Source: Sebaldella termitidis ATCC 33386 (lineage in GTDB: Bacteria; Fusobacteriota; Fusobacteriia; Fusobacteriales; Leptotrichiaceae). Taken from it: a stretch of DNA of 64,000 bases. The translations under genes and the position numbers were made by a program. Where the stretch lies: positions 1,178,001-1,242,000 of the forward strand of contig NC_013517.1 in NCBI RefSeq assembly GCF_000024405.1, in the 5' to 3' direction. Below, one piece after another: positions 10,253-61,263 of the stretch. The number at the start of each line of letters is the position of its first letter. Position 1 is the first letter of the stretch. The notes below the pieces were generated by a model. It saw nothing but the letters and a program-made list of their open reading frames with translations. It was not told where the DNA came from and made no database searches.

Positions 10253-11665
10253 AAAAACTTTTTTTATGATAAATATAAATTTATTATTTTTTATTTCAAT
10301 TTCCGGAATTAAACCATTTAATTTTAATATCATTTTTACTATGGATAAACCAAGACCATTACCGTCAATACTCTTGTCTGTGGCATTTTCACCTCTGGAA
10401 AAAGGCTCCCACAAAAGTTCTTTATCTTTAGTAAGTGCACAGTCCATAGTGTTTTCTATTTTTAATTTATTTTTATCAGAGGATATATATATTATACCAT
10501 CTTCTTTTGAATATTTTAAGGCATTTTGTATAATATTATCAAAAGCTGTTTTTAACAATTTTTCTTCACCTAAAATAATAAAATCGTCTTCGGGAAAAAC
10601 CCAGTTAATATCTTTTTCCAGTTCAAGAGTTTCATATTTCTCTATACTTCTTTTTATGAGATTTAATGAACTGACTTCAGTCTGATTAAGCTTTATACCT
10701 GGCGATGATAGTTTTGAAATAGTCAGAAGATTAGTAACAAGATCATTCATTTCTATACTTTCTTTTAAGATATTTCTGTAATACTTCGGCAGGCTGTCGC
10801 CTTTTATGATTCCGGATACCAGCGCCTGAGCATGGGAATTAATAACAGTAATAGGTGTTTTCAGCTCATGTGAGGCATTGGAAGCAAAAGACTTCAGGTT
10901 TTCGATAGATGATTCCAGATTTCCTGACATAGTATTTATGCTGTCGCTTAATTCACCTATTTCATCATTTCTGCTTATAGATATTTTTTCCGAAAAATCC
11001 AGAATAGAGATTTTTTTAGCTGCAAGATTCAGTTTTTCGAGATCCTTTGTTATTTTCTTTGAAAAAATACTGCCGATAACAGCGCTTATTAACAGAGCAG
11101 CAATTGTAGTGAGGATATTAAATAAAGAAATTTCACGTTTATAGTTTTTCATTGCAGTAAGTGAGCTAGATATAAGCAGTGTACTTTGGTCGGAAAGCTG
11201 TTCTTCGTAAAAAAGCAGCCTTAGTCCTGTTCTTTTCATTTCTATAATGGAGATATTGTCATAGAAAGTCTTTATTTTTCTTGAATCCTCCTTATGCATT
11301 CTTTCCATATCCTTATTCTGCATCATTCCTTTTAAAAACCGCGGAGGCTCGCTGTTATTATTCCGCATTCCGCCCCTCATTGCAGTATTTCCGCCATGTG
11401 TGTTATGAGACGGCGGTTTCATTATATCAATGTTAATTCCTTCTTTATCCTTTATATTTTCAAAAAAATCAGCAAGGTCAGTGTCATTGGCAGCTACTTT
11501 TCTTTTTACTTCACTGCTTATCTTTAATATCTGTTTTGACCTTCTGTGGATATAGAAGTTGTCCAGAAAAAAAATATTGAAAATATAATTCAGAAATACG
11601 GTAGTCAGGATAATAAAGATAGAAAAAATAAATATTTTCTGGAAAAAACTAATTTTTACTTTCAT
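10250..11665 (-). CDS. Sensor histidine kinase with Met/His-rich extracytoplasmic loop
   Basis: 471 residues. Two membrane helices (about residues 8-30 and 155-178) flank a periplasmic domain with an unusual segment rich in Met, His, Gly and Asn (SHNTHGGNTAMRGGMRNN, then GMMQNKDMERMHK). HAMP, then HisKA with the H box SHELKTPITVIN, then an ATPase domain with N box IIQNALKYS and G box GNGLGLSIVKMI follow. It is a complete kinase. The start is the ATG at 11665, overlapping the regulator gene by 17 bases. The Met/His-rich loop suggests copper, silver or another soft metal as signal, supported only by composition and by the His-rich neighbours. Confidence 0.85.
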   Translation of the reverse strand: MKVKISFFQKIFIFSIFIILTTVFLNYIFNIFFLDNFYIHRRSKQILKISSEVKRKVAANDTDLADFFENIKDKEGINIDIMKPPSHNTHGGNTAMRGGMRNNNSEPPRFLKGMMQNKDMERMHKEDSRKIKTFYDNISIIEMKRTGLRLLFYEEQLSDQSTLLISSSLTAMKNYKREISLFNILTTIAALLISAVIGSIFSKKITKDLEKLNLAAKKISILDFSEKISISRNDEIGELSDSINTMSGNLESSIENLKSFASNASHELKTPITVINSHAQALVSGIIKGDSLPKYYRNILKESIEMNDLVTNLLTISKLSSPGIKLNQTEVSSLNLIKRSIEKYETLELEKDINWVFPEDDFIILGEEKLLKTAFDNIIQNALKYSKEDGIIYISSDKNKLKIENTMDCALTKDKELLWEPFSRGENATDKSIDGNGLGLSIVKMILKLNGLIPEIEIKNNKFIFIIKKVF

Positions 11666-12314
11666 CAAACATATACCCCATTCCACGCACTGTTTTTATA
11701 AGATCTCCATAAGGAGAAAGCTTCTTTCTTGTTCTTTTTATAAGTGTGTCTACAACACGGTTATCCCCGTCAAAATCATAACCCCACACTTCATTGAGGA
11801 GCATATCTCTTGTCAGAAGTTTTCCTTTATTTTTTATTATATAATCCAGAAATAAACTTTCTTTTTTCGTAATTTCTATATTTTGTGAATCAATTATAAG
11901 TTCATAAGTCCCAAAATTAAATCTTAATGTTTCATACAGATAATAATCCTCATTTTCTATTTTAAGAAGCTTTTTTATTCTGAGGGTAAGGATTTTCAGA
12001 CTGAAAGGTTTGGTAATATAATCATCAGCTCCTATGCTGAGACCTTTTAGCTCATCCAGTTCCGTGTCCCTTGCAGTCATTATTATAATAGGCTTATTGG
12101 AATCATTTCTTATTTCTTTGCATATGGTCCAGCCGTCTTTTTTCGGAAGATTTATATCCAGAAGTACCAGATCCGGATTCACTTCATAGAACATATCTAT
12201 AGCGGCAGAGCCTTCGTATGCTTTGAAAATTTCAAAGTTTTCCTCAAGAAGGGTATCTTCCAGAACCTCCATAAGATTCACTTCATCTTCTACTATTAAA
12301 ATCTTTTTTTTCAT
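11649..12314 (-). CDS. OmpR-family response regulator
   Basis: 221 residues. The receiver domain has the acidic pair (VEDE), the phospho-acceptor Asp in DLVLLDINLPKKDGW, Thr in MTARDT and Lys in YITKPFS. The C-terminal winged helix has the OmpR/PhoB pattern (LLTRDMLLNEVWG, then RVVDTLIKRTRKKL and TVRGMGYMF). It is first in the pair and overlaps the kinase start by 17 bases. A direct repeat ahead of its -10 suggests autoregulation. The same repeat controls the small peptide gene beyond the kinase. Confidence 0.9.
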   Translation of the reverse strand: MKKKILIVEDEVNLMEVLEDTLLEENFEIFKAYEGSAAIDMFYEVNPDLVLLDINLPKKDGWTICKEIRNDSNKPIIIMTARDTELDELKGLSIGADDYITKPFSLKILTLRIKKLLKIENEDYYLYETLRFNFGTYELIIDSQNIEITKKESLFLDYIIKNKGKLLTRDMLLNEVWGYDFDGDNRVVDTLIKRTRKKLSPYGDLIKTVRGMGYMFDESKN

Positions 12315-12341
12315 ATAAGTACCCCTTTCTGAGATATTTAC

Positions 12342-12374
12342 ATTATATAATAATTTGGTGTCAAAATTATGACA
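12342..12374 (-). promoter_or_regulatory. Putative autoregulatory box and promoter of the first two-component pair
   Basis: On the minus strand: TGTCAT, 5 nt (AATTT), TGACAC, 10 nt, TATAAT. Spacing is identical to the site at 10220-10252. The predicted start is about 20 bases before the regulator ATG. Confidence 0.6.
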
Positions 12375-16699: not shown

Positions 16700-16731
16700 T
16701 TCACATATAGTTCACATTGCAGTGTTATAGT
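16700..16731 (+). promoter_or_regulatory. TTCACA direct-repeat promoter ahead of the outer-membrane protein gene
   Basis: TTCACA, 5 nt, TTCACA, 9 nt, TATAGT. It has the same spacing as sites at 26683, 55891, 56897, 57434 and (minus) 61263. It is 38 kb from the nearest other coding-gene member. The leader to the ATG is about 85 nt. Confidence 0.65.
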
Positions 16732-16824: not shown

Positions 16825-17457
16825 ATGAGAAAATTTTTACTAGTAGCCGGACTATTAGCAAGCATGGCAGTATACGCAGAAGGAAATAAAGTGGAGGTAA
16901 GAGCAGGTTTTGATTTTGGTTCTACATTCCAGCATAATTATTATGATGTAAGCGAAGATGCTAAATTTTCATATGAGCTTGGTGCTGAATACAGAAGAGA
17001 ATTACCTTATAATTTTGAATTAGGTGTAGGTTTGGCATATCAGGATCACGGAAAATTAAAATCAAAATCAAATTATAGAGGATCATACAGCTATACAACT
17101 GAGGGTGATTTATATGATTCAATACCTTTATACGTTACTGGAAGATACAATTTCAAAAATTCATCAGAAATAACACCATATGTTAAAGTAAATTTAGGAT
17201 ATTCAATTAACATGAATGACGGAACAATGAAATTAAAGTATAATGACGGTTCTGAAACTAATTTAGATGTAGATGCTAAAAATGGTTTCTATTACGGGGT
17301 AGGTGCCGGAGTGACATATAAAGGATTTGTAGCAGATTTATCATATCAGGCAAATTATTCAGATGTTGATTTTAAACAAAACGGTAGAACAGTTGAATCT
17401 TCAAGTGCTGATTTTAACAGAGTGACATTAGGATTAGGTTATACATTCGGTTTTTAA
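16825..17457 (+). CDS. Small outer-membrane beta-barrel protein
   Basis: 210 residues. A signal peptide (about 1-19, cleavage after VYA) is followed by alternating amphipathic strands: YELGAEYRREL, FELGVGLAYQDHG, SIPLYVTGRYNF, YVKVNLGYSINM, FYYGVGAGVTYKG, FVADLSYQANYS and a final RVTLGLGYTFGF. The C-terminal Phe is the BAM recognition signal. Size fits an eight-strand OmpX/OmpW/opacity-type barrel. It has its own ribosome site (GGGAGGA) and terminator. Its promoter belongs to the TTCACA-repeat group, so it is a candidate member of the 60-kb regulator's regulon. Confidence 0.8.
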   Translation: MRKFLLVAGLLASMAVYAEGNKVEVRAGFDFGSTFQHNYYDVSEDAKFSYELGAEYRRELPYNFELGVGLAYQDHGKLKSKSNYRGSYSYTTEGDLYDSIPLYVTGRYNFKNSSEITPYVKVNLGYSINMNDGTMKLKYNDGSETNLDVDAKNGFYYGVGAGVTYKGFVADLSYQANYSDVDFKQNGRTVESSSADFNRVTLGLGYTFGF

Positions 17458-26682: not shown

Positions 26683-26714
26683 TTCACATTGAGTTCACAT
26701 TGGTATGAAATAAT
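26683..26714 (+). promoter_or_regulatory. TTCACA direct-repeat promoter ahead of a noncoding transcript
   Basis: TTCACA, 5 nt, TTCACA, 9 nt, AATAAT. It has the same geometry as the promoters of the small secreted proteins near 56-61 kb. No coding frame with a ribosome site follows. Confidence 0.6.
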
Positions 26715-26720
26715 AGTATC

Positions 26721-26845
26721 ATAACAGGAAAGATAAGGTTTTTTGAGAGTAAGGAAGAGAAGTTAGACTTTAGCAGGTTTTGGATATAGAAGAAGTAGGA
26801 GCGTAAAAAAAAAGAAAACCAAGCTGAAAGCTTGGTTTTAAGGAG
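26721..26845 (+). ncRNA. Candidate small RNA of about 120 nt
   Basis: The region begins at the predicted start of the 26683 promoter and ends at a hairpin with stem AAAACCAAGC/GCTTGGTTTT and a downstream T6. Between them all frames with a plausible start are shorter than ten codons. The body is purine-rich (AAGGAAGAGAAG, GAAGAAGTAGGAG), unlike the surrounding DNA. I infer a regulatory RNA made under the same control as the envelope genes. The rest of the gap to 27005 is AT-rich with nothing else visible. Confidence 0.5.
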
Positions 26846-26850
26846 TTTTT
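26815..26850 (+). terminator. Terminator of the candidate small RNA
   Basis: A perfect 10-bp stem with TGAAA loop, ending in TTTT and followed six bases later by TTTTTT. Confidence 0.65.
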
Positions 26851-26970
26851 TGAAGAAAAAAGTTATTTTTCTTTTAGCATGATTTATTTTAACTTTATTA
26901 ACTTAGATTTTTCTTTTTATATACTTAGAGTTTACTTAGAAACAGTAAAGAATCATAAAAAAAACAGAAC

Positions 26971-55890: not shown

Positions 55891-55922
55891 TTCATAAATA
55901 ATTCACATTGATGTAGTATAAT
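55891..55922 (+). promoter_or_regulatory. TTCAYA/TTCACA direct-repeat promoter, copy 1 of the cluster
   Basis: TTCATA, 5 nt, TTCACA, 9 nt, TATAAT. It drives the coiled-coil gene at 55954. Confidence 0.7.
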
Positions 55923-55953
55923 TAAATTGGTAAAGAATAATGAGGTGATAAAA

Positions 55954-56283
55954 GTGAAAAAAATGTTATTAGCCATGTTTTTAATAGTCTTGAGTTTATC
56001 TTCAGTGAGCTTTGGTGCTAAGGATGATCATTATAAAAACAGAGTGGAAAAACAAAAAGCATACGATAAAATTTCTTCAAAATATGAAAAAAAAATAGAA
56101 GATTTAAATAAAAAACTTTCCAAAAAAAATGACGAGCTTGATAAAGCAAAAAGCCAGAAAAAACCTGATAATAAAAAGATAAAAGAAATAACGGGTGAAC
56201 GTGATAAAATTAAAGGTGAGCTTGAATCAGTGCATTCTGATTTTAGAAAAGATTTATCAAAAAATAAGTTGAGTGATTTTTAA
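55954..56283 (+). CDS. Small secreted coiled-coil protein (Spy/ZraP-like), copy A
   Basis: 109 residues from a GTG with GAGGTG six bases upstream. A signal peptide (about 1-20, ending SFGA) is followed by one long charged region. Its pattern is shared with the genes at 57004, 57500 and 60788: Y-x2-I-x-S-K-Y-x2-K-I-x2-L, then KKPDNKKIKEITGERDKIKGEL, then a C-terminal DFRKDLSKNKLSDF. The 'Pro-Asp' turn between two helices recalls ZraP, CpxP and Spy, which are periplasmic chaperones or sensors; FadA-type fusobacterial adhesins are an alternative. Function inferred only. It has its own promoter and terminator. Confidence 0.65.
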   Translation: MKKMLLAMFLIVLSLSSVSFGAKDDHYKNRVEKQKAYDKISSKYEKKIEDLNKKLSKKNDELDKAKSQKKPDNKKIKEITGERDKIKGELESVHSDFRKDLSKNKLSDF

Positions 56284-56312
56284 AGAGCAGTTAAGTAATT
56301 AACTGCTCTTTT
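56282..56312 (+). terminator. Rho-independent terminator
   Basis: The stem AAAGAGCAGTTAA/TTAACTGCTCTTT has a GTAA loop. Confidence 0.8.
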
Positions 56313-56349
56313 ATATTTGTAGCTATTCACTGGGACTGCTCTCAAAAAT

Positions 56350-56655
56350 TTATTTGAAGAGCTCATCTCCGCTTTTAAAATCAAAGCCGGGATGAAAATC
56401 AAAACGAACTGCACCGACAGCAGCCTTTCCTTTGACAGCTTTGCTGATTCTTGCTAAACCTTTATTGCCGAAACCGGCACATAATTCTAACGCTTTTACT
56501 CCTTGGTCCGCCAATTCCACAGCTACTGTCTCAGCCTCTTCATAATCTTTTACACCAACGACAGTAAGGCTGACAGCTGGTGTGTTAACTACTGTTCTAT
56601 GTATTTTGGCGTCTGCTTCCGGTGCAATAAATATAAATGCCGCATTTACTTTCAT
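56350..56655 (-). CDS. DUF6506 family protein
   Basis: 101 residues. The pattern AAFIFIAPEADAKIHRTVVNTPAVSLTVVGVKDYEEAETVA, then KALELCAGFGNKGLARISKAVKGKAAVGAVRFDFHPG, is that of the DUF6506 family as I recall. It looks like a small alpha/beta fold with conserved Glu-Leu-Cys and Gly-Phe-Gly. Biochemical role unknown. It interrupts the coiled-coil cluster on the other strand. The start at 56655 follows GAGGAAG. Confidence 0.7.
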   Translation of the reverse strand: MKVNAAFIFIAPEADAKIHRTVVNTPAVSLTVVGVKDYEEAETVAVELADQGVKALELCAGFGNKGLARISKAVKGKAAVGAVRFDFHPGFDFKSGDELFK

Positions 56656-56896
56656 AAGAAATCTTCCTCTCAAAATTTTTAAAATAAAGATATTGAAACT
56701 TTAGTACACTTATATTATAAATTAAACAAGAATTTTATGACTGCTGTAGATAAAGAAAAAATATCCTCAATTAGCTGCAATTTTATCAATATTTAAATTA
56801 AAAAGCAAGAAAATTTACTGAATATCCCTAAAAAATCAGAATTTTTTTAATGGAAGCCAATGATTTGAAAATTATTATTTTTAAAAATTTAAAAAC

Positions 56897-56928
56897 TTCA
56901 TAATAACTTCACATAGATAGTATATTAT
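56897..56928 (+). promoter_or_regulatory. TTCAYA/TTCACA direct-repeat promoter, copy 2 of the cluster
   Basis: TTCATA, 5 nt, TTCACA, 9 nt, TATTAT. It drives the gene at 57004. The remaining 240 bases up to the DUF6506 gene are AT-rich with nothing else visible. Confidence 0.7.
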
Positions 56929-57003
56929 ATACTTAAGAAAGAAATTATTATAGTGATTTATTTATAAAAATAAATGAACTGCTATATCAGTGAGGTGATT
57001 AGA

Positions 57004-57357
57004 ATGAAAAAAGTTATTGGCATAATAATTGTTATAATAGGATTGTACGAGGTTGGCTTTAGCAGTGGAAATTCATATACAGACGGAAAGTATACTGCTT
57101 CGGATTCAAGGGAAAGACTTAGATATGAACAGGTTTACTCGGGATACAGTGATAAAATAGATCTTTTGTATAAAAGACTGGATGAAAAAAATAAAGCATT
57201 ATCAAGTGAAAAGAACAGAAGAAGTCCTGACTGGGGAAAAATAGAGAGACTGGAAAATGAAAAACGTATAATAAAAAGGGAACTGGATAATACTTATAAA
57301 GATTTAAGATATGATTTGAGAAGGAACAGAATAAATGACTATTCTTATAGAAGTTAA
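57004..57357 (+). CDS. Small secreted coiled-coil protein (Spy/ZraP-like), copy B
   Basis: 117 residues, ATG with GAGGTGATT upstream. The signal sequence (about 1-19, KVIGIIIVIIGLYEVGFS) lacks a clear AxA site. The mature part carries the shared pattern: YEQVYSGYSDKIDLLYKRLDEKNKAL, then RRSPDWGKIERLENEKRIIKREL, then DLRYDLRRNRINDYS. It is strongly basic in the last third. It is a paralogue of the 55954 and 57500 proteins, with its own regulated promoter and terminator. Confidence 0.65.
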   Translation: MKKVIGIIIVIIGLYEVGFSSGNSYTDGKYTASDSRERLRYEQVYSGYSDKIDLLYKRLDEKNKALSSEKNRRSPDWGKIERLENEKRIIKRELDNTYKDLRYDLRRNRINDYSYRS

Positions 57358-57368
57358 CATAATTTCAA

Positions 57369-57402
57369 AAAGATTGTAAGATGAAAAATACAATCTTTTT
57401 TT
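57369..57402 (+). terminator. Rho-independent terminator
   Basis: The stem AAAGATTGTA/TACAATCTTT is followed by a T run. Confidence 0.75.
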
Positions 57403-57433
57403 ATTTGTAAAAAAATAAAAAATAATTATAAAC

Positions 57434-57465
57434 TTCATAATAAATTCACACAGGCATGGTATTAT
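57434..57465 (+). promoter_or_regulatory. TTCAYA/TTCACA direct-repeat promoter, copy 3 of the cluster
   Basis: TTCATA, 5 nt, TTCACA, 9 nt, TATTAT. It drives the gene at 57500. Confidence 0.7.
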
Positions 57466-57499
57466 AATAATATAGAAAAAAAACAATGAGGTGATTAAA

Positions 57500-57880
57500 A
57501 TGAAAAAGTTATTATTAATAGGAATGGTATTAATGTTAGGAATATCTTCAACAGGATTTAGCGCAAGACATAATGACAGAAATTCAAATAGAGGATATAA
57601 TGAAAGATATAGAAATGAAAAACAGAAAAATGAAAATGAAAAAAGATATAATCAAATATATTCAAGATACAGCGGGAAAATAAATTCATTAGAAGCAAGT
57701 CTTAGAAATAAGGATAATGAAATAAAAAGAGAAAGAGTACAGAAAAGACCTGACAGAAGAAGAATGGAAAGACTGAACAGCGAAAGAAATTCTATCAGAA
57801 GAGAACTGGATTCTACATATGCACAGTTAAGAAGAGAACTGGACAGAAATAAACTTACAGCTTACGGGCCGAGAAGATAA
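57500..57880 (+). CDS. Small secreted coiled-coil protein (Spy/ZraP-like), copy C
   Basis: 126 residues. A clear signal peptide (about 1-22, ending TGFSA) is followed by an Asn/Arg-rich stretch (RHNDRNSNRGYNERYRNE). The shared domain follows: YNQIYSRYSGKINSLEASLRNKDNEI, then QKRPDRRRMERLNSERNSIRREL, then AQLRRELDRNKLTAYG. The mature protein is very basic. It is the closest to the pattern consensus among the four. Separate promoter and terminator show the three tandem genes are independent units under one control. Confidence 0.65.
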   Translation: MKKLLLIGMVLMLGISSTGFSARHNDRNSNRGYNERYRNEKQKNENEKRYNQIYSRYSGKINSLEASLRNKDNEIKRERVQKRPDRRRMERLNSERNSIRRELDSTYAQLRRELDRNKLTAYGPRR

Positions 57881-57898
57881 AATTTTGAAATTAATATA

Positions 57899-57937
57899 AA
57901 ATACAGAATATCAATAAATGATATTCTGTATTTTTTT
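57899..57937 (+). terminator. Rho-independent terminator
   Basis: A perfect 15-bp stem (57899-57913 with 57919-57933) is followed by T residues. Confidence 0.85.
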
Positions 57938-57955
57938 GTATATTCTGAATCGGTA

Positions 57956-57984
57956 TGAAAAAACAGGGACTTTTGTCTCTGTTT
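57956..57984 (-). terminator. Terminator of the VOC/PhnB-like gene
   Basis: AAACAGGGAC/GTCTCTGTTT (one G-U) has the T tail on the minus strand. Confidence 0.55.
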
Positions 57985-58058
57985 ATAGAGTTTGTTAAGT
58001 TTTATAAAGCTTGCATAAGATATTCGGATATTTCTAAAAAATATCTGCAAAACAAATT

Positions 58059-58478
58059 TTATAATGTAGTATCATGATTTAGATTCCAAGATAATCCGAA
58101 TTTATCTGTCACAGAACCGTAGCATTCACTCCATGGTGTTCTTTGGAGAGGCATAGTTGCATTTCCGCCGTTTTCCAGCTGTGAAAAAACTTCTTTTATG
58201 TCTTCCAGCGATGATGATCTGTAAGCTGTAACAATGTTATTTCCAAAATTATAATTATATGCAGGCGGAACATCTGCAAACATGATTGTTTCCCCGCCTA
58301 TTTTTAATTCTCCGTGGGAAATAAGATTTTTCGTTTCATCAGTAAGTGCCGGGTCATTTTCACTTTTTACTTCCGAAAAAGTTTCAAAAATTGGTTCTGC
58401 TTTAAAGATTTTTCCGTAAAATTCCATAGCTTCCCTGCAGTTTCCGTTGAATAAAAAATATGGAGTTATTTTTGCCAT
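58059..58478 (-). CDS. VOC-superfamily PhnB-like protein
   Basis: 139 residues. The pattern ITPYFLFNGNCREAMEFYGKIFKAEPIF, then ISHGELKIGGETIMFADVPP, and the C-terminal TPWSECYGSVTDKFGLSWNLN is that of PhnB/YjdN-like glyoxalase-fold proteins (once called 3-demethylubiquinone methyltransferase-like). Metal-binding residues are only partly present. Function unknown. The start at 58478 follows GGAAGAA. Confidence 0.8.
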   Translation of the reverse strand: MAKITPYFLFNGNCREAMEFYGKIFKAEPIFETFSEVKSENDPALTDETKNLISHGELKIGGETIMFADVPPAYNYNFGNNIVTAYRSSSLEDIKEVFSQLENGGNATMPLQRTPWSECYGSVTDKFGLSWNLNHDTTL

Positions 58479-58546
58479 AATAATTCTTCCTTTCAAATTT
58501 ATATATTTGTATTATTATAGCAGATTTTTTATAAAATAAACAATGT

Positions 58547-59923
58547 TTATACGGCTTTTTCTATATCAAACCAAAATTTTACCCCGTTTTCGGTATTAAC
58601 TACACCGGAATCACAGTTTAGCTTTTCAAGTATTCCCTTTACAATAGCCAGTCCCAGACCAGTTCCTCCATATTTTCTGCTGCGTGAATCATCCTCTTTG
58701 AAAAATGGTTTCCAGATTTTATCAATAACTTCTTCCGGAATCAAAGGCCCGTTATTTATAATCTCAATAGTAAGATAATTTCCCTTTGAAAAAGAATGCA
58801 CTCTTATTATCCCTGTTCCGTCATCGGGAACAAATGAGATGGCATTGCTTATAAGATTGGTAAGTACCTGAAGCAGTAAAGTCCGATTGGAATTTACCAT
58901 GATTTTCGGAACATTAAAGTCAAGAAGAATATTTTTGGCATCAAAATCTACTTTATATTTAAGGAGGATAGAATTAATAAATTCCCTCAATTCAAAAACT
59001 TCATATTGGAATTCATGTAAAAGTGATGAACTTTTTAACAGAACCAGAAGTGAATCAATGAGCTTGGTCATATGCTGTCCTTCATTTATTATTTCTCCGG
59101 CGTATTCCTGAAGCTCTTCTACAGTATCCGCATATCCTCCGGCAATAAATTCCGCATGTGTATTCATAATAGTAATGGGTGTTTTCAGTTCATGAGTTAT
59201 GGCAGTAATAAAATTTTTGGTATCCTGATCTTTTTTTCTTTCGTAATCAATATCCTGTTGTAATTCAACATTCATGTTTTTCAGATTTTGAAGATTATTT
59301 TCCAGTGTCTGGGAAAGCAGGTTCAGATTATTGGCAGTTTCGCCAAATTCATCCCTGGTGTGTAGGTCGAGCTTTTCAGAGAAGTTAAGATTAATAATCT
59401 CTTTGATATTCCCGTTGATTAATGTGATTTTTTTGGAAAGGTATCTTGAAAAAATCATAACCAGAGGAATCGAAAAAACAAGAGATATCAAACCAACATA
59501 AACATAAAAAGTATTGGAAACTTCCACGGCATTTTCTACCTGTTCAAGCGGGGTTATCAGGGCATACTGTCCTTCAGGCGTTTTTCTTATTATAAGCTTC
59601 AGCCATGTGGGACCTCTTGAAAATCTTAGTATTTCAAATTCATAATTATTTTTTTTGAAAGCTTTTGTAGTTTTATTTCTGGTATCTTCAAGCATTCTTC
59701 TGGGAATAAAGTGATATGAGGTTTCATCGTCGATGTCAATGCTCTTTTTTTCCACAGGGATCAGTTTTCTGGTATCCAGAGTGGATGCAATACGCATAAG
59801 ATCTTTTTCTCTCAGTGCTACATAGTAACTGTTTAAAAATAATTTATTTGATAATATTCCGAATGTTATTGTAGAAATTATTAATAACATTGTAAAGAAG
59901 AATATCTTATATATTATTTTCAT
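58547..59923 (-). CDS. Sensor histidine kinase of the second two-component pair
   Basis: 458 residues. Two membrane helices (about 5-25 and 143-165) flank a periplasmic domain of about 115 residues with many charged residues but no Met/His-rich stretch. HAMP, HisKA (H box THELKTPITIMNTH) and an ATPase domain (N box LTNLISNAISFV, G box GGTGLGLAIVKGI) follow. It overlaps the regulator gene by 17 bases, as in the pair at 10-12 kb; the two pairs look paralogous. The neighbouring small periplasmic proteins could be its accessory sensors, as CpxP is for CpxA; this is an inference. Confidence 0.87.
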   Translation of the reverse strand: MKIIYKIFFFTMLLIISTITFGILSNKLFLNSYYVALREKDLMRIASTLDTRKLIPVEKKSIDIDDETSYHFIPRRMLEDTRNKTTKAFKKNNYEFEILRFSRGPTWLKLIIRKTPEGQYALITPLEQVENAVEVSNTFYVYVGLISLVFSIPLVMIFSRYLSKKITLINGNIKEIINLNFSEKLDLHTRDEFGETANNLNLLSQTLENNLQNLKNMNVELQQDIDYERKKDQDTKNFITAITHELKTPITIMNTHAEFIAGGYADTVEELQEYAGEIINEGQHMTKLIDSLLVLLKSSSLLHEFQYEVFELREFINSILLKYKVDFDAKNILLDFNVPKIMVNSNRTLLLQVLTNLISNAISFVPDDGTGIIRVHSFSKGNYLTIEIINNGPLIPEEVIDKIWKPFFKEDDSRSRKYGGTGLGLAIVKGILEKLNCDSGVVNTENGVKFWFDIEKAV

Positions 59924-60560
59924 TTTTCACCTCAAATTTATATCCAAATCCTTTTACAGTGGTAATATATTCATGTCCTATTTTCTTTCTCAGATTCTTA
60001 ATATGAGTATCTACTGTTCTGGGATCACTTTCACAGAGAAGATCCCATACATTATTCAGAATCTGCTCTCTGGAAAAAATCTTACTGTGGTTTTTGGCAA
60101 GATAAAACAGCAGATCGTATTCCTTTGGAGGAAGATCAACAATTTTTTCATTTAAATATACATTTTTTTCATTTTTTAAAAATCTAAAGTTTCCTATTGT
60201 GTATATCTCATCACCCAGAAGGTTTTTCAAACGAAGCTCCAGAATTTTCAGGCTGAAAGGCTTTCTTATATAATCATCTGCTCCTATTTCAAGTCCTCTT
60301 ATCTCGTCTTCTTCCTGAGTTTTGGCAGTAAGCATAAGGACAGGAGTAGTTTTTTCACTTTTAATGGCTCTGCATACTTCATAGCCGTCTTTTTTCGGCA
60401 TCATAACATCAAGGAGCACAAGATCCGGATTCCATTCATAAAAAAGATCCAGCCCTTCCTCACCATCAGCGGCCTCTCTTACGATATAACCGTTTTTTAC
60501 AAGAAAAGAACGAACTACTTTACGTATTCTTTCTTCATCTTCTACAATTAAAATTTTCAT
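59907..60560 (-). CDS. OmpR-family response regulator of the second pair
   Basis: 217 residues. Receiver motifs VEDEERIRK, DLVLLDVMMPKKDGY (phospho-Asp), LTAKTQ and YIRKPFS; the winged-helix domain has LPPKEYDLLFYLAKN, IFSREQILNNVWD, RTVDTHIKNLRKKIG and TVKGFGYKFE. It is the best candidate to bind the TTCACA repeats found at six promoters in this window, four of them within 5 kb. Its own upstream region has one isolated TTCACA but not the full repeat. Confidence 0.9.
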   Translation of the reverse strand: MKILIVEDEERIRKVVRSFLVKNGYIVREAADGEEGLDLFYEWNPDLVLLDVMMPKKDGYEVCRAIKSEKTTPVLMLTAKTQEEDEIRGLEIGADDYIRKPFSLKILELRLKNLLGDEIYTIGNFRFLKNEKNVYLNEKIVDLPPKEYDLLFYLAKNHSKIFSREQILNNVWDLLCESDPRTVDTHIKNLRKKIGHEYITTVKGFGYKFEVKNENNI

Positions 60561-60582
60561 TTTCCCTCCTTAATGTGGTCGG

Positions 60583-60614
60583 CATCCTGTAATATCAGAA
60601 TTTTCGTCAGGATG
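60583..60614 (-). promoter_or_regulatory. Leader hairpin of the second regulator gene
   Basis: CATCCTG/CAGGATG form a 7-bp stem with an 18-nt loop, 23 bases before the start codon and just ahead of the GGAGGG ribosome site. Confidence 0.4.
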
Positions 60615-60635
60615 ACAGTGTGAATTTTATATCTA

Positions 60636-60664
60636 TTTATATCATATAAATAAAATTATGTAAA
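60636..60664 (-). promoter_or_regulatory. Promoter of the second two-component pair
   Basis: On the minus strand: TTTACA, 17 nt, TATAAA. Confidence 0.5.
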
Positions 60665-60690
60665 AAAGATTATTTATAAAATGTAAATAG

Positions 60691-60742
60691 GGAGAAATAA
60701 ATATCTGTTTTTTGGCAATAGTGTCAGAATATTTATTTCTCC
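60691..60742 (-). repeat. Large perfect inverted repeat between the fourth coiled-coil gene and the regulator gene
   Basis: GGAGAAATAAATAT pairs perfectly (14 bp) with ATATTTATTTCTCC, and CTG/CAG add to the inner stem. There is no T run after it on either strand. It may be a processing or attenuation hairpin in a transcript reading from the coiled-coil gene into the regulator. Confidence 0.5.
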
Positions 60743-60787
60743 AAAATATTTTTGGATTTATAATATTAAAAGGTGTAGCGGGCTGTA

Positions 60788-61198
60788 TTATCCTCTTTGA
60801 GGGGCGGGTCTGCTGCCTCTGTGCAGATTTTTTCCGGTATGTCCTGCTCTTAAATTGTTGTCTTTCATCTCGGCTCTCATCTGGTAACCCAGCAGCTCTT
60901 TCTGCGCCTTTAAGTCTGCTTTCTTTTTAGTAAGGTTTTCTACTTTTTTCCAGTCAACCTTCTCTGCTCTGAGCTGTTTTTGTAATTCCTGTCTGTTCTC
61001 CAAAAGACTTACATCAAGCTTGTTAAATTTGTCTTCGTATTTAGAGTAAATCTGCTCATATAATTTTTTATTTTCTGCCGAGATTGTTTTTTGTATCTGT
61101 TTAGCGGGAACCTGTACAGGAACAGCCTGCTCCGCAAAAGAGAATGAAGATAATGCTGTCATTACAGACAGTGTTGCAATTATATTTTTTTTAATCAT
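60788..61198 (-). CDS. Small secreted coiled-coil protein (Spy/ZraP-like), copy D
   Basis: 136 residues, ATG with GAGGTGATC upstream. Signal peptide about 1-22 (ending SFA), then a proline/valine linker (QAVPVQVPAKQIQ) and the shared domain: YEQIYSKYEDKFNKLDVSLLENRQEL, then KVDWKKVENLTKKKADLKAQ, then GYQMRAEMKDNNLRAG. The C-terminal tail is Arg/His/Pro-rich (HTGKNLHRGSRPAPQRG). The helix-turn-helix spacing aligns well by eye with E. coli ZraP. It lies directly upstream of the second two-component pair, the position CpxP and ZraP genes take relative to their kinases. Confidence 0.68.
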   Translation of the reverse strand: MIKKNIIATLSVMTALSSFSFAEQAVPVQVPAKQIQKTISAENKKLYEQIYSKYEDKFNKLDVSLLENRQELQKQLRAEKVDWKKVENLTKKKADLKAQKELLGYQMRAEMKDNNLRAGHTGKNLHRGSRPAPQRG

Positions 61199-61231
61199 TT
61201 TGATCACCTCATAAATTTTTTCTATATAACT

Positions 61232-61263
61232 ATAATATAATATCAATGTGAAATGTAAGTGAA
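61232..61263 (-). promoter_or_regulatory. TTCACT/TTCACA direct-repeat promoter of copy D
   Basis: On the minus strand: TTCACT, 5 nt, TTCACA, 9 nt, TATTAT. The first half-site differs from TTCAYA at its last base. The remainder of the 61264-61522 gap is AT-rich; a weak TTGAAT, 17 nt, TAATAT at 61362-61390 may serve the next gene. Confidence 0.65.

What the first reader, a model, noticed from the sequence alone, without database searches (positions are those of the whole stretch)
55891..61263. A six-promoter regulon with a shared direct-repeat box around an unassigned two-component system
Seen: six intergenic sites (16700, 26683, 55891, 56897, 57434 on plus; 61263 to 61232 on minus) share TTCAYA, 5 nt, TTCACA, 9 nt and a -10 hexamer with invariant spacing; the copy D site has TTCACT as its first half. 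The 11-bp half-site period and its position replacing the -35 match how PhoB/OmpR-family activators bind. Four sites flank the regulator at 59907-60560. Inference: this regulator activates a regulon of small periplasmic proteins, an outer-membrane barrel and a noncoding RNA, like an envelope-stress response built independently of sigma-E or Cpx.
Basis: partly seen in the sequence, partly recalled or inferred. Interest (0 to 1): 0.88.

Follow-up and report, generated by a model that had tools for sequence, protein, structure and literature searches.

The report
Sebaldella envelope regulon with PhoB-like box
In the termite-gut bacterium Sebaldella, about 30 promoters share one switch sequence that is probably turned on by a neighbouring sensor-regulator pair, and they drive small periplasmic chaperone-like proteins, outer-membrane proteins and small RNAs, which looks like an undescribed cell-envelope response.

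Summary
All six sites exist with invariant spacing (6 found, 0.13 expected). The genome (size matches Sebaldella termitidis) holds about 30; 29 are intergenic. The motif is enriched in all four Sebaldella genomes and near absent in 56 other relatives, the same distribution as the two-component system beside four of the sites. Fusobacterium response regulators with a nearly identical recognition helix carry the box before their own gene. The genome's true PhoB sits in a pst operon whose promoter has four TTTACA repeats, so this is not the Pho regulon.

The four small proteins beside the regulator are ZraP-like: a profile search and a fold search both put ZraP (3lay) first. Copy D, regulator and kinase lie in tandem in all four genomes, with the box in front of D. 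Of 26 first genes, 20 look exported; three sites drive conserved small-RNA-like transcripts.

Best reading: an OmpR/PhoB-family activator that replaces the -35 element and runs an envelope regulon resembling Cpx-CpxP or Bae-Spy but not orthologous to them. Direct binding, signal and stress role are inferred. One point is open: a sister genus has the box but no detected orthologue of the regulator.

The parts
16700..16731 (+). activator box and -10 (TTCACA-N5-TTCACA-N9-TATAGT) before an outer-membrane barrel gene
   Evidence: orthologous site in G001
16825..17457 (+). outer-membrane beta-barrel protein (PF13505, E 1e-13)
26683..26714 (+). activator box and -10 (best-scoring site of the window, 39.3 bits)
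26715..26856 (+). predicted small RNA srnA, ending near a GC-rich hairpin (about 26815-26840); conserved in two other Sebaldella genomes; no Rfam match
55891..55922 (+). activator box and -10 before gene A
55954..56283 (+). gene A, small exported ZraP-like protein (GTG start)
56897..56928 (+). activator box and -10 before gene B
57004..57357 (+). gene B, small exported ZraP-like protein
57434..57465 (+). activator box and -10 before gene C
57500..57880 (+). gene C, small exported ZraP-like protein
61232..61263 (-). activator box and -10 (TTCACT first half) before gene D and, by read-through, probably the regulator and kinase
   Evidence: order conserved in four genomes
60788..61198 (-). gene D, small exported ZraP-like protein; AlphaFold2 model is a helical hairpin matching ZraP
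60561..60787 (-). D-regulator intergenic stretch with a long hairpin (GGAGAAATAAATAT...ATATTTATTTCTCC) conserved in four genomes; no U-tract follows it
59907..60560 (-). OmpR/PhoB-family response regulator (P0001), the proposed activator
58547..59923 (-). sensor histidine kinase (P0002): two membrane helices, HAMP, HisKA, HATPase_c

Best explanation
The box is a two-half-site binding site for the OmpR/PhoB-family response regulator at 59907-60560. The phosphorylated regulator binds as a head-to-tail dimer over the -35 region (about -38 to -22) and recruits RNA polymerase to a -10 hexamer 9 nt downstream, as PhoB does at class II promoters. The kinase at 58547-59923 senses an unknown cell-envelope signal. 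The regulon has about 30 promoters: five ZraP-like small periplasmic proteins, two outer-membrane barrels, DKNYY-family proteins, lipoproteins, a large two-partner-secretion-type exoprotein, an operon with a periplasmic cyclophilin, and three small RNAs. Because D, regulator and kinase are in tandem behind one box, the system probably amplifies itself, and D or its paralogues may feed back on the kinase as CpxP and ZraP do. Shown: sites, spacing, intergenic placement, conservation, co-occurrence with the two-component system, ZraP-like sequence and fold. Inferred: direct binding, activation, operon read-through, feedback, stress function.
For: Sites real and non-random; fixed coupling of box and -10 (17 of 19); 29 of 30 intergenic. 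Motif count (up to 1 mismatch; forward+reverse, control in brackets): own 19 (0), G001 20 (1), G002 7 (0), G003 6 (0); 17 (9) over 56 other relatives. Regulator orthologues (85-98%) and full-length kinase orthologues (70-95%) only in the same four genomes. Sites before D and before other ZraP-like genes near the two-component system are conserved in the genus. Fusobacterium regulators 51-54% identical, helix DDRTIDTHIKNLRKKIG against DPRTVDTHIKNLRKKIG, carry TTCAYA-N5-TTCACA-N9-TATACT 37-43 nt before their own start in three genomes and TTCACA-N5-TTCATA in a fourth. The genome's PhoB lies with pstB and phoU behind TTTACA repeats. 20 of 26 first genes look exported against 18.8% genome-wide (PMC3035275), p about 2e-10. 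ZraP is the best match of A-D by profile (3lay, E 2.4e-5) and by fold (prob 1.00, TM 0.77-0.80 on target length). The nearest kinases outside the genus (G050, G058; 35-36%) lie beside a regulator preceded by small exported proteins, one with the same K-x-DW-x-x-I signature.
Against: No DNA-binding or expression data. G004, of another genus in the family, has box-like sites before exported proteins but no orthologue of this regulator was found; its genome is 88% complete. The Sebaldella regulator has no box directly before its own start, so autoregulation needs read-through past a hairpin. The regulator tree does not resolve Sebaldella with the Fusobacterium group that carries the box. Some targets are not envelope genes (458056, 1308125, 4053487 loci), one site is inside a coding region (4057669), and no DegP/DsbA-type gene was seen among first genes.
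Confidence: 0.74

Rival explanations
1. The box belongs to the phosphate (Pho) regulon: TTCACA direct repeats resemble PhoB/PhoP boxes of other bacteria and the regulator merely sits nearby.
For: Same architecture as a pho box (11-bp repeats, 9 nt to the -10); recognition helix is PhoB-like.
Against: A separate PhoB lies next to pstB-phoU, and that promoter has four TTTACA/TTTATA repeats, not TTCACA. None of the roughly 30 sites is before a recognised phosphate gene. The motif is confined to Sebaldella.
Confidence: 0.04
2. Another response regulator of Sebaldella binds the box (for example the one at window 11649-12314, or 2460776, which is shared with G004).
For: Seven full-length OmpR-family regulators exist in the genome; the one in the window is 4.4 kb from the 16700 site; G004 has the box but lacks P0001 and keeps the 2460776 orthologue.
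Against: 2460776 orthologues occur at 67-83% identity in nearly all motif-poor Leptotrichiaceae tested. The 11649-12314 regulator has its own, different repeat, GTCATA-N5-GACACC-N9-TATAAT, before its gene. Neither is flanked by four conserved boxes.
Confidence: 0.14
3. The regulator and box are real but the regulon is a surface-remodelling or host-contact response, like CarSR of Fusobacterium, not a stress response.
For: Many targets are surface or secreted proteins (barrels, DKNYY proteins, large exoprotein); CarSR controls an adhesin operon and senses coaggregation (PMC12186487). No DegP, DsbA or BAM gene is among first genes seen here.
Against: Several ZraP-like proteins, a periplasmic cyclophilin operon and small RNAs are typical of Cpx/Bae-type responses (PMC6737893); box sites precede an LTXXQ (Spy/CpxP) protein in G004 and PBP1A-like genes in G050/G058.
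Confidence: 0.3
4. The sites are a dispersed repeat or a chance AT-rich promoter pattern.
For: None beyond AT richness.
Against: Flanks differ between sites, spacing to the -10 is fixed, 29 of 30 are intergenic and most are oriented to the next gene; reversed-pattern controls are near zero.
Confidence: 0.01

Closest known systems
Cpx response (CpxAR with CpxP) of Enterobacteria
   Same: OmpR-family two-component system beside a small periplasmic CpxP/Spy/ZraP-type protein gene that carries the regulon's promoter; regulon includes periplasmic folding factors and a small RNA (PMC6737893)
   Different: Regulator far below the CpxR cut-off (125.9 of 341 bits); ZraP-like genes are multicopy; D, regulator and kinase are in tandem, not divergent; box is TTCAYA-N5-TTCACA; small RNAs have their own box promoters
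BaeSR-Spy and ZraSR-ZraP
   Same: Two-component system controlling a ZraP/Spy-type periplasmic chaperone; ZraP represses its own ZraSR system (title of a reference in PMC6737893)
   Different: ZraR is a sigma54-dependent NtrC-type regulator (own knowledge), this one is OmpR/PhoB type; A-D have no cysteine and 0-2 histidines, so zinc sensing is not suggested
PhoBR and the pho box
   Same: Direct repeats with 11-bp period taking the place of the -35; similar recognition helix
   Different: The genome has its own PhoB with a TTTACA box; targets are envelope genes
CarSR of Fusobacterium nucleatum
   Same: Two-component system of the same phylum controlling surface protein genes
   Different: CarR binds an A/T-rich 17-bp motif without the TTCAC core (PMC12186487); represses radD
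Sigma-E response of Fusobacterium nucleatum with FoxI/FoxJ
   Same: Phylum-level envelope response with small RNAs (PMC11005410)
   Different: Sigma-factor promoter, not an activator box with a sigma70-type -10

Membership tests
OmpR/PhoB-family response regulator | Receiver domain plus C-terminal winged helix (Trans_reg_C) | tested here: met
   PF00072 E 9e-31 and PF00486 E 2.5e-23, both above cut-off
PhoB (phosphate regulator) | PhoB equivalog score and linkage to pst/phoU | tested here: not met
   185 of 296 bits; the PhoB candidate with pstB and phoU is a different gene
CpxR / BaeR orthologue | NCBIfam equivalog cut-off | tested here: not met
   CpxR 125.9 of 341 bits, BaeR 158 of 380 bits
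ZraP-type periplasmic protein | Exported helical-hairpin protein with significant similarity to ZraP in sequence and fold | tested here: met
   Profile hit to 3lay E 2.4e-5; top six fold hits 3lay, prob 1.00; single sequences are below curated cut-offs
ZraP orthologue with zinc binding | NCBIfam equivalog cut-off and metal-ligand Cys/His | tested here: not met
   18-21 of 200 bits; no cysteine in A-D
Spy/CpxP (LTXXQ) | LTXXQ motif, PF07813 | tested here: not met
   No PF07813 hit for A-D; met only by the box-driven gene of G004, L056, 35.7 bits against a cut-off of 24.3
Two-component envelope stress response | Induction by envelope damage | not testable with these tools
   No expression data
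Two-component envelope stress response | Regulon dominated by exported or outer-membrane proteins, with folding factors | tested here: met
   20 of 26 first genes exported by a simple hydrophobicity rule; ZraP-like proteins and a cyclophilin operon
Class II activator promoter | Box overlaps the -35 at a fixed distance from the -10 | tested here: met
CarR regulon | A/T-rich 17-bp CarR motif | tested here: not met
   Table 1 of PMC12186487 compared with alignment A1

The most novel reading that the evidence does not exclude
A separate, Fusobacteriota-wide envelope surveillance system: a PhoB-like regulator that uses TTCAYA-type repeats drives ZraP-like or Spy-like periplasmic chaperones and dedicated small RNAs. 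It is strongly expanded in Sebaldella (several ZraP paralogues, three small-RNA loci) and present in reduced form elsewhere in the phylum (C-rich tandem small RNAs and a TolC-like gene in Fusobacterium, PBP1A-like genes in another genus, an LTXXQ protein in a sister genus).
Probability: 0.35. Interest if true: 0.75.

Novelty: new variant of a known kind. Interest (0 to 1): 0.6.

Why it matters
Envelope stress control is known mostly from Proteobacteria; in Fusobacteriota the papers found here describe a sigma-E response and a few two-component systems. A predicted regulon with a precise box, about 30 targets, ZraP-like proteins and three small-RNA loci gives a testable account of a second envelope pathway in an early-branching diderm phylum, and suggests that the pairing of a sensor kinase with a small helical periplasmic protein recurs across distant diderms.

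Tried and rejected
Pho regulon: rejected on the PhoB box and target list. Regulator 2460776 as the binder: rejected by its distribution. CarR equivalence: rejected by motif. Rfam search of the three small-RNA loci: only chance-level matches, best E 0.099. AlphaFold2 of the kinase sensor region failed (pLDDT 47, two sequences), so the signal stays unknown. The regulator search of genome contigs gave mostly distant homologues and no useful species names. A regulator tree did not resolve orthology between Sebaldella and Fusobacterium. Phage collection search with srnA: no match. Papers on a Sebaldella two-component regulon: none found.
Full report
Origin. The window is bases 1178001-1242000 of the chromosome of a genome of 4,486,650 bases. 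The total and the chromosome length of 4,418,842 equal those published for Sebaldella termitidis NCTC 11300 (PMC3035275).

Observation. With up to two mismatches the pattern finds six places in the window against 0.13 expected. A matrix made from 26 genome sites scores them 29-39 bits; the next best place is a register-shifted overlap of the D site at 12.6 bits, and the best unrelated place scores 10.7. The matrix was trained on sites that include these six, so the scores describe separation and are not an independent test; the reversed-pattern controls are (0 against 19 genome-wide at one mismatch or fewer).

Genome-wide. A pattern scan, a relaxed pattern and a calibrated sequence model agree on about 30 sites. 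Twenty-nine of 30 lie between genes although about 83% of the window is coding. Asking only for the double half-site, 19 perfect copies exist against 3 in the reversed control, and 17 of the 19 have a -10 hexamer exactly 9 nt downstream. Box and -10 are therefore one unit, placed as a PhoB-type activator site that takes over the -35.

What the sites drive. Of 30 sites, 26 are before protein genes, 3 before small-RNA-like transcripts and 1 is inside a coding region, antisense. Of the 26 first genes, 20 have a signal-peptide-like N-terminus; 18.8% of genes in the genome do (PMC3035275), p about 2e-10. The list holds small helical exported proteins (A-D and 1529702), two outer-membrane barrels, three DKNYY-family proteins, lipoproteins, a 2396-residue exported protein and several small exported proteins. 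One operon has an exported cyclophilin as its second gene (PF00160).

The small proteins. Single sequences give only weak matches to ZraP and Metal_resist. A profile of 12 family members finds Salmonella ZraP (3lay) as the best solved structure, E 2.4e-5, with an almost gapless match; the next hits are coiled-coil proteins such as vimentin (E 0.008). The AlphaFold2 model of D is a helical hairpin with pLDDT above 95 in most of its core, and the top six fold matches are all 3lay, probability 1.00, TM-score 0.77-0.80 on the target. Its Foldseek E-value is only 0.035, as expected for a short helical protein, so sequence and fold carry the claim together. A-D lack cysteine and the LTXXQ motif, so they are ZraP-like in fold, not ZraP orthologues and not evident zinc sensors.

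The regulator. Regulator and kinase are an ordinary OmpR/PhoB pair with no close named relative. Four lines link them to the box. First, distribution: clear orthologues only in the four Sebaldella genomes, which are the only ones among the own genome and 59 relatives with strong motif enrichment. Second, position: boxes before the ZraP-like genes around the pair are kept in the other species as far as their contigs show, and D-regulator-kinase is in tandem in all four. Third, autoregulation in relatives: in Fusobacterium, regulators 51-54% identical with a nearly identical recognition helix have the same box with the same spacing 37-43 nt before their own start; the promoter-pattern scan found three of these independently of the regulator search. 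Regulators of another genus with a changed helix (DERVVDTQIKILRKKIG) carry TACACA repeats instead. Fourth, the genome's own PhoB, with yet another helix, sits behind TTTACA repeats. The correspondence of helix and box base is suggestive, with few independent points, and the tree leaves orthology to Fusobacterium open.

Wider occurrence. The kinases most like this one outside the genus (35-36% over full length, G050 and G058) lie beside a regulator preceded by two small exported proteins, one with the same signature. Box-like sites also stand before a PBP1A-like gene in both of those genomes, before tandem C-rich small-RNA-like units and a TolC-like gene in Fusobacterium, and before an LTXXQ protein and two small exported proteins in G004. 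These are weaker matches and the regulators there are not identified.

Small RNAs. srnA (window 26715 to about 26856) is conserved in two other Sebaldella genomes; srnB (3818035) in three; srnC (3824376) in one. srnB and srnC share a stem CAGTATAA/TTATACTG, with one pair changed on both sides (A-U to G-C), and a loop GGAGUUUUU. One compensatory pair is weak support for the structure. None matched Rfam at a meaningful level. Targets are unknown.

Mechanism and limits. Most likely the phosphorylated regulator activates by class II contact at a box in the -35 region, the D promoter also supplies the regulator and kinase by read-through, and ZraP-like proteins act as periplasmic chaperones with possible feedback, as CpxP and ZraP do (PMC6737893). 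Binding, sign of regulation, read-through past a conserved hairpin, feedback and the inducing signal are inferred. The main loose end is G004, with boxes but no orthologous regulator found in an 88% complete genome.

Verdict. Observation confirmed and enlarged; interpretation largely supported in mechanism, unproven in physiology. It is a new variant of a known kind: an OmpR/PhoB-type envelope regulon with multicopy ZraP-like proteins and small RNAs in Fusobacteriota.

Noticed in passing
L235/L243 (G041), L043 (G053), L238 (G048): In larger Fusobacterium genomes, TTCACA-N5-TTCACA-N9-TATATT stands before tandem copies of a short RNA-like unit with a C-rich hairpin (AAAATCTTTCCCCAAGATGTTTT) and a terminator; reminiscent of FoxJ, whose C-stretch also lies in a hairpin loop.
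   Followed up: partly
L232 (G050), L233 (G058): Box-like site (TTCATAATAACATCACATAAATATGAAATAAT) conserved before a PBP1A-like gene in two genomes of another genus.
   Followed up: partly
L056, L046/L234 (G004): Sister genus has box sites before an LTXXQ (Spy/CpxP) protein and two small exported proteins, yet no orthologue of the Sebaldella regulator was found.
   Followed up: partly
window 60561-60787 (-): Long hairpin between gene D and the regulator, conserved in four Sebaldella genomes, not followed by a U-tract; perhaps a processing or attenuation element.
   Followed up: partly
G000:C1:4057669-4057700 (L035, L145): High-scoring box antisense inside an NAD(P)HX epimerase/dehydratase-like gene; similar sites found in G001 and G002.
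   Followed up: no
window 26840-26895: After the srnA hairpin a 10-codon reading frame (TTG start, MKKKVIFLLA) behind AAGGAG is conserved in three genomes.
   Followed up: no
L133 2330-2400 (G000:C1 about 322860-322930): Promoter of pstB-phoU-phoB-phoR has four 11-bp TTTACA/TTTATA repeats and the -10 at 9 nt: a likely pho box of Sebaldella.
   Followed up: partly
window about 12340-12370 (-): The second two-component system of the window (11649-12314) has its own repeat GTCATA-N5-GACACC-N9-TATAAT before the regulator gene.
   Followed up: no
L082, L083, L085, L086: Regulators of another Fusobacteriaceae genus carry TACACA-N5-TACACA repeats before their own genes, with a changed recognition helix.
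   Followed up: partly
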